From positions 16,889 through 80,888 of the forward strand of contig JAFZNO010000100.1 in the NCBI GenBank assembly GCA_017552985.1: DNA of 64,000 nucleotides, written 5' to 3'. Each line of letters begins with the position of its first letter. Position 1 is the stretch's first letter. This DNA comes from Lachnospiraceae bacterium. Its GTDB lineage: Bacteria; Bacillota; Clostridia; Lachnospirales; Lachnospiraceae. Shown piece after piece: positions 31,004 to 62,851 of this stretch. The translations under genes were made by a program, and so were the position numbers. The notes under the pieces were generated by a model that worked only from the letters and a program-made list of their open reading frames with translations, searched no databases and was not told where the DNA came from.

Positions 31004-31216
31004 TTACCTCTGATACCCATGCCTGTCCATGATCTGATAATAGGTTTCGATTTCATCCGCCAGCATTTCGCGGTTCCTTTCAGCCTGGAGATCAAGCTTA
31101 AAACTCGTAATCTGAAACTCCATCTCCAAGTGAACCCAGTAAATCGTAATTCCGCAGCACACAATGGCCAAGATGGACAAGGCCAACGCTATCTGACACG
31201 TCAATCTCTTTTTCAT
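31004..31216 (-). CDS. small single-pass membrane protein, paralog of 58312-58524
   Basis: This 70-residue protein has one transmembrane helix (ALALSILAIVCCGITIYWV) and a charged helical C-terminal half (LQAERNREMLADEIETYYQIMDRHG). It is about three-quarters identical to the protein at 58312-58524. AAGGAG precedes the ATG, which overlaps the stop of the truncated PolC-like remnant upstream (ATGA). I do not recognise the family. The repeated pairing with a PolC-like gene suggests a joint role. Confidence 0.75.
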   Translation of the reverse strand: MKKRLTCQIALALSILAIVCCGITIYWVHLEMEFQITSFKLDLQAERNREMLADEIETYYQIMDRHGYQR

Positions 31217-31392
31217 GCCTTCTCCTTCCCTGCCTGCCTCTCGCATCTTCCGAGAATCCTGCCTTCCATAAACTCCAGTTCCCTATACAGATTTTTCTCA
31301 TTTGGCGCCATGAATGCTTCAATGATCGAACATCCTTGCAGAACTTCCTCTTGATACTGCCTGTCAAACAGACCAGCAACGTCTTCATAACA
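31213..31392 (-). pseudogene. 3' remnant of a PolC-like gene
   Basis: About 59 codons match the end of the protein at 58539-60137: YEDVAGLFDRQYQEEV, then GCSIIEAFMAP, NEKNLYRELEFMEGRILG. An in-frame stop lies just upstream of the match and the frame has no start codon, so it is a truncated copy. It ends in an ATGA overlap with the small membrane gene, which preserves the original gene pair's 3' end. The rest of the gene was lost at the junction with the 3' side of the transglutaminase gene. Confidence 0.85.
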
Positions 31393-58311: not shown

Positions 58312-58524
58312 CTATCGACCAAACCCATGCTTTTCCATGATTTGATTATAAGTCTCGAATTCGTCCGCCAACATCTCACGGTTCTTTTCTGCCTGAAGTT
58401 CAAGCCTAAAATTTGTGATCTGATATTCCATCTCCAGATGAACCCAGTAAATCGTAATCCCACAGCAGACAATGGCCAAAACGGACAGCGCCAATGCCAG
58501 CTGACACATAAATCTTCTCTTCAT
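58312..58524 (-). CDS. small single-pass membrane protein paired with the PolC-like gene
   Basis: This 70-residue protein has a transmembrane helix (ALALSVLAIVCCGITIYWV) followed by a charged helix (LQAEKNREMLADEFETYNQIMEKHG). It is a close paralog of 31004-31216; the helix and the motif NREMLADE are unchanged. It starts 15 bases after the stop of the PolC-like gene and is followed by a terminator, so the two form an operon. The family is unknown to me. Confidence 0.78.
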   Translation of the reverse strand: MKRRFMCQLALALSVLAIVCCGITIYWVHLEMEYQITNFRLELQAEKNREMLADEFETYNQIMEKHGFGR

Positions 58525-58538
58525 AATCTCTCCATTCT

Positions 58539-60137
58539 CTACGGTCTTTTACATTTACCAAGAATCCTGCGCTCCATGAATTCAAGTTCCTTATAAAGAT
58601 TCTTCTCACCTGGAGCCATGAAGGCTTCGATGATCGAGCATCCTTCCAAGATTTCGTCTTGATATTGCTTGTCAAACAGGCTGGCGATGTCTTCATAGGA
58701 CGCATCCATTATCTCTTTGCAAAAATACATGATCACCTGTCTAGGCAACACATATTCAGGACTCCTTTTAGCCGAAAGTACGTCCTCCTTATCTAGCTCG
58801 AAGTAGTCGGAAACAACGCTAGCGATGATGTCTGTCGTAACATCGTCAGTAGTCTTATCAAGCATCTTTACCCAGGCCAGCCTTGTATACATCAGCATGT
58901 ACTCAATGGCATGTGCCCTTGGGAAGACATACCTAAAGTGACTAGCCGTGCGTTCCAGGTCAGTTGGAAGTAGGAACTCCGTGCATTCCTCAATCTTTTT
59001 CGGCTTTGAAAACCAGCCCTTTCGAAAGGCTTCCATTGCGTCATATGCTCGCTCGCATTCTTCACCATCGGGATCCATCAGGTAATCAAACACATCCTCT
59101 CTGGCGTACAAAGGGCACCTTTTGAATTCATCGGAACGCATCAGTTCCACGCACGCGTCAGGAATCTCAACGTCATCTACTTCCCCGTCCGCCAAGGTCG
59201 CATGCGACAAAGCTTCCAGATTCACCATCTCGCGAAAGCTCTGTGGTTTGCATTCCATGAAGAGTCGCTCGGTCGCTTCTGACAGATCCACACAGTCATA
59301 AACGTCACGCCAGCCAATTTTCTTTAGCGCCTGCACGCCAAGCAAATCCGGATCAACCTTATGCTTCCAGCTCAACTTATAAAGCTGATCTAACCCCTCA
59401 TGATCAATCAGAGAGATGGAGATCATTCCCAGCTTTTCCATTTTGTTCGGGTTTCCGATCAGACAAGCCTCACCGTTTTCAAGGCCATGCAGATACTCCA
59501 TAACGCTCTTGTCTTTAACCGTCATGCCCTGCGGCAGAATGATAAATCCAACTGGCTCGATATGCTCTTCCTCATCATCACCGCGATAAGTGAAGCCACC
59601 CTTTACCACAATCTCCCTGTTTGGATATGCTTCGCGCAAAGCCCTCTCTACAATCGGACGAAAGTCCTTAACTATGTTGAAATCAAAAGCGATCGTCTTC
59701 TTTCCGTCTATACCCCAGACGCTTTCCTTGGGAATGCCATATCCATCCGCCCAAATCTTCCTCCCGCATTCAGGGCAAGTCTTTTCGGGCAAATCCACTC
59801 CATATCCGTGACTTGGAACAAACTCATAATGACCGCAGTGCGGGCAGTAATAATGCGCCGGCATCGGATTGAATCGTCCGTGACCAAGAAGAAAATACAA
59901 CAGCGATCCCATCAGCGTTCCACGACCATAGAGCGGAACCCCCTTGGCAGCGGCACTCCTCGCCAAAAGGCGATAAACATTAAAGTGCTCAACGTAATTT
60001 GATTCGGCCAAGGCGCTAATTTCCTTCTCATATCGATCTCTGACTTCTGCCGGAATACCTGCAGGATACGTCTCTGCCAGCTTCTTTTCGCATACCTCGC
60101 GAATCATCAAAATCTTATCCTGATTTATGTCTTTCAT
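58539..60137 (-). CDS. stand-alone PolC-like protein, apparently with a degraded polymerase site
   Basis: This 532-residue protein aligns with the C-terminal polymerase half of PolC, not with the full 1400-residue enzyme. Matching landmarks are YGRGTLMGSLL (PolC GSRGSVGSS), PMPAHYYCPHCGHYEF (PLPPHYVCPNCKHSEF), DLPEKTCPECG (zinc cysteines), FREMVNLEALSHAT (FSELVQISGLSHGT) and FPRAHAIEYMLMYTRLAW (FPKAHAAAYVLMAVRIAY). The catalytic PDIDLNF reads IAFDFNI here and the third aspartate region reads ISISLID, so two of three metal-binding aspartates seem lost. No exonuclease or OB domain is present. AAAGGAGTGAGTGC precedes the ATG. It is co-transcribed with 58312-58524. The function is unknown. Confidence 0.82.
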   Translation of the reverse strand: MKDINQDKILMIREVCEKKLAETYPAGIPAEVRDRYEKEISALAESNYVEHFNVYRLLARSAAAKGVPLYGRGTLMGSLLYFLLGHGRFNPMPAHYYCPHCGHYEFVPSHGYGVDLPEKTCPECGRKIWADGYGIPKESVWGIDGKKTIAFDFNIVKDFRPIVERALREAYPNREIVVKGGFTYRGDDEEEHIEPVGFIILPQGMTVKDKSVMEYLHGLENGEACLIGNPNKMEKLGMISISLIDHEGLDQLYKLSWKHKVDPDLLGVQALKKIGWRDVYDCVDLSEATERLFMECKPQSFREMVNLEALSHATLADGEVDDVEIPDACVELMRSDEFKRCPLYAREDVFDYLMDPDGEECERAYDAMEAFRKGWFSKPKKIEECTEFLLPTDLERTASHFRYVFPRAHAIEYMLMYTRLAWVKMLDKTTDDVTTDIIASVVSDYFELDKEDVLSAKRSPEYVLPRQVIMYFCKEIMDASYEDIASLFDKQYQDEILEGCSIIEAFMAPGEKNLYKELEFMERRILGKCKRP

Positions 60138-60285: not shown

Positions 60286-61041
60286 CTAAACTTCTATCTC
60301 TCCATACCTTTCAACTATTCCATTAAAAACTCTTTCCATCTTTTTGTCGTCATACCGACTGGCCAAGGATACCTGGCATCCCGTTTCATACTCTTCAAAC
60401 GTCAACTCATTATACATCAGGAAATCCCACACTAAATAGCCTCGATTCCCTTTATAATTTATCAAATCCCGTCTGCAGACAACCGCATATGGTCTTTTTT
60501 CATTCTTTTCTTTCGTGATGATTTGATCAAGGATTTCATCTAAATTCTCATCCTCTCGAATGTCTTTTCCCTCATTATTCTCATCAGTGGATTGCGTTTT
60601 TCCCGCTTCGGCCGCTTCCTGGGCATTCCTTTTCCGGTCACACTCATTCCTTGCATTCTTTGCAAAATCCACAGCCGCAATCCATCCTATAGCCTCCGTA
60701 ACACCCGCCGCCACAGTGGCTGAAACTATCGAACCCGCAACAGGGATAAGTTTCACCAGGTTTCTTCCCACAAAAGTAGACGCGGCAGCCCCAATAATCC
60801 CTTTTGCAACAGCATCCGTCAACTCTTGTCCAAAAATTTTCCCCAAAGCGATCACCATTGTAATTTGTGCGGCAGAAATAGGTATTGCATCTGCCATAGG
60901 AATAGGTATCGCTCCTGCAACACCGCTAGCCACAGAAGCCGTGTGGATCGCGGTTTTGCACTTAAGCTTTTGATCTTCCGTCATTAGTTTTTCAGCCTCG
61001 AGTTTCTTGTCCTTCAAGACTTTCTTGTAATCTTTTGCCAT
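60286..61041 (-). CDS. DUF697-domain protein
   Basis: This 251-residue protein has a glycine/alanine-rich helical domain (about 30-130: AGAIPIPMADAIPISAAQIT, IFGQELTDAVAKGIIGAA, NLVKLIPVAGSIVSATVAAG). That domain matches DUF697, a membrane-inserting domain often fused to or encoded beside small GTPases. An acidic linker and a separate C-terminal domain of about 90 residues follow (VVCRRDLINYKGNRGYLVWD). No GTPase gene is adjacent. GC content here is lower than in the pectin region, which hints at transfer. Confidence 0.75.
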   Translation of the reverse strand: MAKDYKKVLKDKKLEAEKLMTEDQKLKCKTAIHTASVASGVAGAIPIPMADAIPISAAQITMVIALGKIFGQELTDAVAKGIIGAAASTFVGRNLVKLIPVAGSIVSATVAAGVTEAIGWIAAVDFAKNARNECDRKRNAQEAAEAGKTQSTDENNEGKDIREDENLDEILDQIITKEKNEKRPYAVVCRRDLINYKGNRGYLVWDFLMYNELTFEEYETGCQVSLASRYDDKKMERVFNGIVERYGEIEV

Positions 61042-61848: not shown

Positions 61849-62512
61849 TTATCGTTTTTCTTCTATTGACGAATGCTTATAGGTATCCAACGCAACCCCA
61901 AAATCTATCATCATAATCGTCGACAAGTCTTGTTTTGATGGATTCACTATATTGATAACTCGTTTGGCATGAGCCATGGTCATATCATCATACAGATTTC
62001 TAGCCAAGCGTGCATTCGCAAAATGCTCATCTTTTTGTTCCGATTCCTTCTCAAAGAATCTTTCCAAATCTGTTTCCATGGCATCATCCAATTTATAATC
62101 ATTGATTTTACATATCAGACTTAAAATCTCTACCAATGCTTTAGGCGAATAATCCTCAAACTCAATAAATGTGTTGAATCTAGACTTTAATCCTGGATTA
62201 GAATCAAAGAATTTCCGCATTGGTTCCGTATATCCAGCTACTATTACAACAAGATCGTCTCTATAATCTTCCAGGGCCTTTGTCAACTCCGTTAAGCATT
62301 CTCTGCCATACGAATCGCTGTGATCGTTTTCCGTTATACTATATGCCTCATCTATGAACAGTACACCGCCCTTGGCTTCTTCAATTACTTTTTTTACCTT
62401 AAGTGCCGTTTGTCCTTGATACCCAGCTATAAGGTCAGTTCGTGACACCTCAACAAAATGTCCTTTTGATAAAATACCCATGCTTTTATACATGCGTCCA
62501 ACAATTATTTGA
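61849..62512 (-). pseudogene. 3' part of a CbxX/SpoVK-type AAA ATPase, Walker A lost
   Basis: About 220 residues match the CbxX/CfqX AAA family from just behind the Walker A motif: VGRMYKSMGILSKGHFVEVS, DLIAGYQGQTALKVK, the Walker B GGVLFIDEAYSI, and the NPGLKSRFNTFIEF arginine finger. The nucleotide-binding loop (usually TGNPGTGKT) and all N-terminal sequence are missing. Upstream, the DNA changes at about 62505-62512 into an unrelated PcfB-like gene in another frame. The product could only start at an internal codon and would not bind ATP normally. Confidence 0.82.
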
Positions 62513-62741
62513 TGTTTCCTTCGTTCACCTCTATACTCACGGCTCCGGCATTCTGCTCGTTCAGTTCCTTCAGCGTCATCTTTCCGTGCTTCGGTTCCTG
62601 CACCTTTCCTTTTGCACTTTGTGCAGCCCTCGCTTTTTCGGCGGCAATTATCTTCGCCAGTGCCCTTGCGAGCACCGTGGCCGTAAGCCTTATGGCACTG
62701 AATGATACGGATACCACCTTCTGGTTTACTTCCTCTTCCAT
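62505..62741 (-). pseudogene. 5' part of a PcfB-like (DUF3801) conjugation gene
   Basis: A frame of 78 residues starts at an ATG preceded by AAAGGAGCAGGAA. Its sequence (MEEEVNQKVVSVSFSAIRLT, HGKMTLKELNEQ, VSIEVNEGNIK) matches the N-terminal half of PcfB/DUF3801 proteins of integrative conjugative elements. Those proteins continue with a conserved second half after GNIK, but here a stop follows at once and ATPase sequence begins. It is a remnant of a conjugative element joined to another gene. Confidence 0.75.
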
Positions 62742-62851
62742 TTCCTGCTCCTTTCCTAAAATCTCGTGTTCCCATTTCTTTTCATGGCGGAACCACCAAC
62801 TTTCTCAAGTAGATCTTCATTCCTTCGCTCCTTTCCATTTCTGTCGAAAAA

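What the first reader, a model, noticed from the sequence alone, without database searches (positions are those of the whole stretch)
58539..60137. Free-standing PolC-derived protein with an apparently dead polymerase site
The protein keeps the zinc knuckle (CPHC...CPEC), the LSHAT and FPRAHA landmarks and the overall order of the PolC C-terminal half. It lacks the exonuclease and OB parts. The catalytic PDIDLNF has become IAFDFNI, and the third aspartate region reads ISISLID. A retained fold without catalysis suggests a new role: binding DNA, a clamp or nucleotides, or acting as a decoy or inhibitor of the replicase. I know of no described function. The homology is read from memory of PolC sequences, not from a search.
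Basis: partly seen in the sequence, partly recalled or inferred. Interest (0 to 1): 0.87.

Follow-up and report, generated by a model that had tools for sequence, protein, structure and literature searches.

The report
Dead replicase core with regulatory partners
Some gut Lachnospiraceae carry a cut-down, catalytically disabled copy of the bacterial replication enzyme PolC that selection keeps and that, in most relatives, sits beside its own switch gene, which suggests that a DNA-copying machine has been turned into a regulator or decoy.

Summary
Window 58539-60137, minus strand, encodes 532 residues. Residues 12-425 are collinear with the PolC core (best PDB match 3f2b; profile-profile E 5.9e-36). 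The four zinc cysteines are kept, one of three catalytic aspartates remains, and the 54-residue FRAGTI-to-GQHPGG block has shrunk to 21. No PHP, exonuclease or OB domain was found.

It is not a lone oddity. A scan of 84,980 species gave 18 loci with relatives, 17 labelled as Lachnospiraceae or its genera, one 'Clostridiaceae'. They form one clade apart from PolC. The third aspartate is lost in 14 of 14 aligned members, and three usable pairs give dN/dS 0.12-0.19. In 13 of 16 loci with enough flank a WYL-type regulator lies divergently upstream, across a promoter region with a shared palindrome. The window copy lacks both and has the DnaA-like tail instead.

Best reading: a pseudo-replicase serving as non-catalytic effector of a small self-regulated module. 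Identity is firm; function is inferred.

The parts
58539..60137 (-). 532-aa pseudo-PolC / DnaA-domain-IV protein (P0001)
   Evidence: ribosome-binding-like GAAAGGAG shortly before the ATG
59646..60104 (-). residues 12-164: matches PolC 419-573 of PDB 3f2b, with zinc site
   Evidence: E 8.9e-21 for this stretch
59766..59846 (-). zinc-site cysteines C98, C101, C121, C124
   Evidence: all four cysteines in 14 of 14 family rows of A4
59682..59690 (-). former DxD site: Asp1 is Ala150, Asp2 kept as Asp152
59412..59414 (-). former third catalytic Asp, Ser242 here
   Evidence: one search places Leu243 there
58863..59267 (-). residues 291-425: matches PolC 751-877 of 3f2b (fingers part, RKG and FPRAH landmarks)
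   Evidence: E 1.6e-6 for this stretch, E 2.5e-16 with the family profile
58620..58841 (-). residues 433-506: DnaA domain IV
   Evidence: PF08299 E 1.2e-15; one search match to E. coli DnaA domain IV 1j1v
58650..58664 (-). YQDEI in place of the DHTTV recognition motif of DnaA
58312..58524 (-). 70-aa ORF with one hydrophobic stretch (by eye), 14 bases downstream of P0001
31015..31389 (-). second, partial copy: last 51 residues of a P0001 paralogue plus the 70-aa ORF (31004-31216)

Best explanation
The protein is a pseudo-replicase: a trimmed PolC polymerase core that has lost two of its three catalytic aspartates (shown by sequence) and has been kept by selection for a non-catalytic job (inferred from dN/dS of relatives). 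It belongs to a Lachnospiraceae family whose usual form is a two-gene module with a divergently transcribed WYL-type regulator and a shared palindrome between them (shown for relatives). I infer that the regulator, sensing a nucleic-acid or nucleotide signal, controls its own and the pseudo-PolC gene, and that the pseudo-PolC then acts by binding rather than catalysis, on primer-template DNA, nucleotides or replication proteins, to tune or stop replication under stress or phage attack. In the window's genome the WYL link is missing; there the core is fused to a DnaA domain IV that probably no longer reads DnaA boxes and more likely contacts proteins, and it is followed closely by a small hydrophobic protein.
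For: Homology. Disabled site: Asp3 lost in 14 of 14 rows, Asp1 in 13 of 14 (two acidic: Asp in L083, Glu in L084), Asp2 is Asp or Glu in 14 of 14, and the FRAGTI-GQHPGG block is 21-29 residues against 54 in PolC. Selection: dN/dS 0.193, 0.125, 0.120 for the three pairs with dS up to 1.2. One clade with 100/100 support. Module: WYL regulator in 13 of 16 testable loci plus a remnant in L074; HTH_11 and WYL/WCX matches and PADLOC WYL E 5e-16. Palindrome in 13 of 13 of those loci, 66-73 bases before the start codon in 11 and 122 in two. In four genomes it is matched on both strands only at this locus. WYL domains bind ssDNA in PafBC (PMC11804915, passages) and WYL regulators sit at phage-defence loci (PMC9122601, abstract).
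Against: No functional data. L073 shows neither the palindrome nor WYL in its 209 upstream bases before the contig ends, and L074 has no palindrome; L089 and L090, which are partial, have no WYL. The window copy has neither. Defence genes near the modules are few and the control is small. The WYL Pfam scores are below the curated cut-offs. Several members are broken: L068, L072, L074. Other dN/dS values are saturated.
Confidence: 0.45

Rival explanations
1. Sensor or co-regulator: the pseudo-PolC core senses nucleotides or DNA and modulates a DNA-binding regulator, in trans with the WYL protein, or in cis when fused to an XRE helix-turn-helix as in L025. It acts on transcription, not on replication.
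For: Divergent WYL partner in 13 of 16 testable loci; XRE (HTH_3 E 5.9e-15) fused to a separate trimmed PolC core in genome G005; palindrome apparently dedicated to the locus.
Against: The DnaA domain IV of the window protein is acidic (-12 against +1 for the host DnaA) and lacks DHTT, so it is a poor DNA-binding arm. The XRE form is a single example, placed apart from the family on a very long branch, and a search with its middle part found 0 of 299 genomes.
Confidence: 0.3
2. Defence or toxin-like module: WYL represses a pseudo-PolC that harms replication when released by phage infection.
For: Sporadic spread: 7 of 397 family-level genomes with strong matches and 2 of 138 in the genus. Differing neighbours, Tn916-type integrases beside 3 of 13 modules (loci), AbiH, a restriction-type helicase and a PDC-S01 ATPase near single modules.
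Against: No PADLOC family matches the protein itself; no relative in IMG/VR viral contigs; the control set had fewer hits but comes from three stretches of two genomes.
Confidence: 0.2
3. Decaying accessory PolC gene without function.
For: Broken copies exist (L068, L072, L074), and the window itself holds a fragment of a second copy.
Against: Intact ORFs in most loci, low dN/dS, conserved zinc cysteines and family-specific motifs, conserved promoter region.
Confidence: 0.04
4. Still a polymerase or nucleotidyl transferase with re-arranged metal ligands. Caution comes from archaeal PolB2, predicted inactive but found to be an extender (PMC8764526, start of abstract in a listing).
For: Asp2 kept as Asp or Glu in 14 of 14 rows; L083 keeps DxD.
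Against: Asp3 lost in all 14, with no conserved acid in its place; active-site block shortened in all 14.
Confidence: 0.03

Closest known systems
[quoted passage not shown] NCBIfam PRK00448)
   Same: Collinear polymerase core with the four-cysteine zinc site and FPKAH-like landmark
   Different: 532 or about 440 residues against about 1,440-1,560; two or three catalytic aspartates gone; active-site block shortened; no PHP, exonuclease, OB or C-terminal part
DnaA domain IV (PF08299)
   Same: Helix-turn-helix core of residues 436-492; R399, R407 and Q408 equivalents kept (alignment; their role is recalled)
   Different: DHTT motif is YQDE; net charge -12 against +1 in the host's DnaA; no AAA+ part
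WYL regulators of stress or defence (PafBC, DriD, BrxR, CapW)
   Same: Relatives' partner gene has HTH, WYL and WCX regions and a palindrome at its promoter, as a dedicated local regulator would
   Different: WYL motif reads YYL or YYI; the partner is a pseudo-PolC, not a known defence system; absent in the window
Other inactive polymerases: ImuB (Y family), C-terminal module of Pol epsilon (B family)
   Same: A polymerase fold kept without catalysis
   Different: These are parts of larger polymerase assemblies; here a C-family core stands alone or with a small fused domain. The two C-family surveys whose passages I saw report no inactive C-family group there
Divergent accessory PolC in G1176 (L126:6002-8482, 826 aa)
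   Same: Nearest PolC to the family in two trees; lacks exonuclease
   Different: Keeps PHP and all three aspartates (PDFDINF, KMDLL)

Membership tests
PolC-type DNA polymerase III | Sequence homology to the PolC core | tested here: met
PolC-type DNA polymerase III | Three catalytic aspartates, reported as absolutely conserved in the C family (PMC3919608, passage) | tested here: not met
   A, D, S in the window protein
PolC-type DNA polymerase III | PHP and exonuclease domains | tested here: not met
   no such Pfam match
PolC-type DNA polymerase III | Full-length NCBIfam PolC equivalog score (cut-off 873 bits) | tested here: not met
   130.2 bits
PolC-type DNA polymerase III | Polymerase activity | not testable with these tools
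   needs an assay
DnaA initiator | Domain IV by Pfam cut-off (31.5 bits) | tested here: met
   57.7 bits
DnaA initiator | DHTT recognition motif | tested here: not met
   YQDE; the host's and two related DnaA, 3 of 3, have DHTT
DnaA initiator | AAA+ domain III | tested here: not met
   no AAA match
WYL / pseudo-PolC module (this report) | Core homologous to the family, in one clade | tested here: met
WYL / pseudo-PolC module (this report) | Divergent WYL regulator and palindrome upstream | tested here: not met
   none in the window or in L026 to its left; the right side ends at the contig end
Known anti-phage defence system | Match to a PADLOC model | tested here: not met
   0 families for P0001 and for the L076 member

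The most novel reading that the evidence does not exclude
A new kind of cell-made replication brake: a WYL-controlled pseudo-PolC that, on a DNA-damage or phage signal, is made as a catalytically dead replicase core and blocks or redirects replication, and that in the window's lineage has gained an acidic DnaA-like domain so that one protein mimics both the initiator and the replicase.
Probability: 0.2. Interest if true: 0.88.

Novelty: new variant of a known kind. Interest (0 to 1): 0.7.

Why it matters
Inactive polymerases with regulatory roles are known in the B and Y families, but in the C-family surveys whose passages I saw the catalytic aspartates are called absolutely conserved, and fragments without an intact active site were removed before counting (PMC3919608). 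A conserved C-family pseudoenzyme with its own regulator would show that the bacterial replicase core can be reused as a binding module, and would open a direct test of how gut Lachnospiraceae regulate or interrupt replication.

Tried and rejected
Searches with whole proteins were swamped by PolC; the middle region was used instead. Three IMG/VR scans found no relative. tblastn of phage and plasmid records gave 23 and 17 records; the two best phage-record hits proved to lie in long PolC frames, 1456 and at least 1386 aa, with PDIDLNF and LKLDILGHD intact; the other phage records were not examined, and most listed plasmid hits are annotated as PolC, several not annotated. The class search gave 125 of 391 genomes, but only G000 strongly; nearly all the others are long PolC-like frames at E 2e-7 to 1e-3. 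I first put the active-site loss at 47 residues; one search corrected it to 33 in P0001. An idea that every member is tied to a DNA-binding arm was dropped because the DnaA-like domain is acidic. Core net charge was uninformative, since PolC cores are acidic too (median -14 of 37). No tRNA in the window. The PADLOC comparison used 84 of 112 listed neighbour ORFs against 63 of 66 control ORFs; control genes come from three stretches of two genomes, so it is a weak control, and only ten of the 84 were scanned one by one. The palindrome consensus was derived from the same 13 loci that it was scored on, and no shuffle test was made; some genomes have more single-mismatch hits elsewhere than the reversed control, so a small regulon is not excluded.

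Full report
Observation. The ORF is on the minus strand, 58539-60137, 532 residues. A PolC core is found by three independent routes: curated PolC models (130.2 and 120.8 bits, E 5.8e-38 and 4.2e-35, far below the full-length cut-offs), solved PolC sequences (3f2b E 1.3e-30 and 9qpc E 6.5e-28), and a profile-profile comparison (408 columns, E 5.9e-36, collinear through the middle). With the family profile the PDB holds two matching sequences, both PolC (1.4e-48 and 8e-43). The host genome has its own normal PolC, in a frame of 1561 residues, and its own DnaA, in a frame of 483.

Residues 433-506 are a DnaA domain IV (57.7 bits against a cut-off of 31.5; E. coli domain IV 1j1v). The recognition motif DHTT, present in the host's and two related DnaA (3 of 3), reads YQDE. 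Residues 430-506 carry a net charge of -12, against +1 for the same length of the host's DnaA. From recalled structures, Arg399, Arg407 and Gln408 of E. coli DnaA have counterparts here, but Asp433, His434, Thr435 and Thr436 do not. I therefore think it unlikely to read DnaA boxes.

The family. A search with the middle region, which PolC does not match well, found 6 of 299 family-level genomes (one of them weak). The scan of 84,980 species with alignment A2 gave 18 loci: 17 are labelled Lachnospiraceae or genera of it and one 'Clostridiaceae'. L079 and L088 come from the same bin and are probably two ends of one gene. Three of the 18 (L073, L082, L086) are the same records as members already found (L069, L071, L070), and L076 is the same as G681, a genome of the window's own genus. 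Profile A5 gave strong matches in 7 of 397 family-level genomes, only in G000 among 391 class-level genomes, and P0001 gave 2 of 138 in the genus. The usual member is 435-455 residues long, without the DnaA domain; only the window protein has it among those seen.

The dead site. In A4, which holds 14 family rows, Asp1 is replaced in 13 of 14 (Asp in L083, Glu in L084), Asp2 is Asp in 9 and Glu in 5, Asp3 is lost in 14 of 14, and the four zinc cysteines are kept in 14 of 14. L074 and L079 are not in A4; L074 is N-terminally truncated and has lost the first zinc cysteine. The stretch from FRAGTI to GQHPGG has 54 residues in PolC and 21-29 in the family, 21 in P0001. Sequence cannot prove inactivity: archaeal PolB2 was predicted inactive and is an extender (PMC8764526, start of abstract in the listing).

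Selection and descent. Of six pairs, three have dS of 1.2 or less, with dN/dS 0.193, 0.125 and 0.120; the other three (0.091, 0.086, 0.041) are saturated. The family with P0001 is one clade at 100/100 in trees of 54, 31 and 30 rows. P0001 is drawn as the first branch, with the other 15 joined at 93/86, 94/89 and 87/88, so that place is likely but not certain; the trees are rooted at the midpoint. The PolC nearest to the family is L123, an 826-residue form with PHP and intact aspartates; on such long branches this is a hint only. L025, an XRE helix-turn-helix fused to another trimmed PolC core with Arg, Asp and Ala at the three sites, falls apart from the family on a branch of 4.0 and may be an independent case.

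The WYL partner. All-against-all comparison of neighbours found one widely shared neighbour. L075 to L087, 13 loci, have a divergent regulator with HTH_11 and WYL or WCX similarity; Pfam scores lie under the curated cut-offs, while PADLOC's WYL models match at 5e-16 and 9.8e-14 for the two tested. In L087 the regulator's N-terminus is out of frame. L074 keeps a 27-residue remnant; L089 and L090, partial members, have none; L073 ends 209 bases upstream and shows nothing; L088 is a C-terminal piece. Thus 13 of 16 testable loci, 14 with the remnant. Outside this list, L068 and L072 have broken copies of both genes. The intergenic gap is 154-164 bases in 11 and 209 in two (L077 taken from the ORF coordinates). 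A palindrome close to GCTGTACYATTTTTGGTACAGC lies 66-73 bases before the start codon in 11 and 122 in two, with 1-6 mismatches; L073 and L074 have none. In eight genomes searched with up to one mismatch, four (G681, G613, G564, G515) have it on both strands at this locus and nowhere else on both strands; scattered single-strand hits were 5, 5, 4 and 0 in these four, against 2, 1, 1 and 5 for the reversed control. This fits a dedicated local regulator better than a large regulon, but does not exclude a small one.

Neighbourhood. Apart from the regulator no neighbour is shared by more than five loci, so the pair sits in different places. Tn916-type integrases occur near three modules (L068, L084, L086). 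PADLOC matched an AbiH and a schlafen-type protein near L085, a restriction-type helicase near L084 and a PDC-S01 ATPase near L082; the control showed only kinase-, regulator- and ATPase-type models. The control is small and unmatched, so I give this little weight.

The window copy. No WYL protein, no palindrome. A 70-aa ORF with one hydrophobic stretch follows 14 bases after the stop (58312-58524). Both the last 51 residues of the protein and this ORF have a second copy at 31004-31389, 78% and 77% identical, with dN/dS 0.047 (dS 2.2) and 0.078 (dS 1.5); the genome holds no other strong copy. So a paralogue with the same tail existed and was mostly lost, and the DnaA-like tail is not an assembly artefact of one gene.

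How it may work. Shown: PolC descent, disabled site, selection on relatives, and a linked regulator with a conserved promoter palindrome in relatives. Inferred: regulation by the WYL protein, the signal, and action by binding. WYL domains of PafBC bind ssDNA (PMC11804915, passages) and BrxR represses a defence island through inverted repeats (PMC9122601, abstract and section list). I put a replication- or stress-directed, non-catalytic effector first, a co-regulator of transcription second, a defence toxin third.

Print. I saw passages of PMC12926913 (2026 survey) and PMC3919608 (2013 survey), the abstract of PMC9122601, passages of PMC11804915, a word search without hits in PMC11963600, and only listings for the rest. 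Searches showed no paper on an inactive PolC-like family or a WYL-PolC pair in the rows listed; the library holds open-licence papers only.

Noticed in passing
L025:6931-8415 (genome G005, same genus): 494-aa protein: XRE helix-turn-helix fused to another trimmed, disabled PolC core (R, D, A at the catalytic sites; four zinc cysteines kept). Possibly an independent origin.
   Followed up: partly
L126:6002-8482 (genome G1176): 826-aa accessory PolC with PHP and intact aspartates but no exonuclease, close to macrodomain, ADP-ribosylglycohydrolase-like and phosphoesterase-like genes (by eye).
   Followed up: partly
L045 / L127 (genome G387): Divergent PolC-like protein with PDIDLNF and LKLDILG but without the zinc-site segment.
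   Followed up: no
window 31004-31389: Partial second copy of the tail of P0001 and of the 70-aa ORF, next to a transglutaminase-like ORF (by eye).
   Followed up: yes
window 61849-62775: SpoVK/CbbX-like AAA ORF whose Pfam AAA match starts at profile position 23, so the Walker A start may be out of frame or missing.
   Followed up: no
window 60286-61041: DUF697-like protein (26.2 bits, just under the cut-off) upstream of P0001 on the same strand, with a terminator-like hairpin between them by eye.
   Followed up: no
L074:9743-9823 (same gene seen in G1145, L117): A 27-residue WYL remnant overlaps the truncated start of the pseudo-PolC ORF, as if a deletion had removed the start of both genes.
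   Followed up: partly
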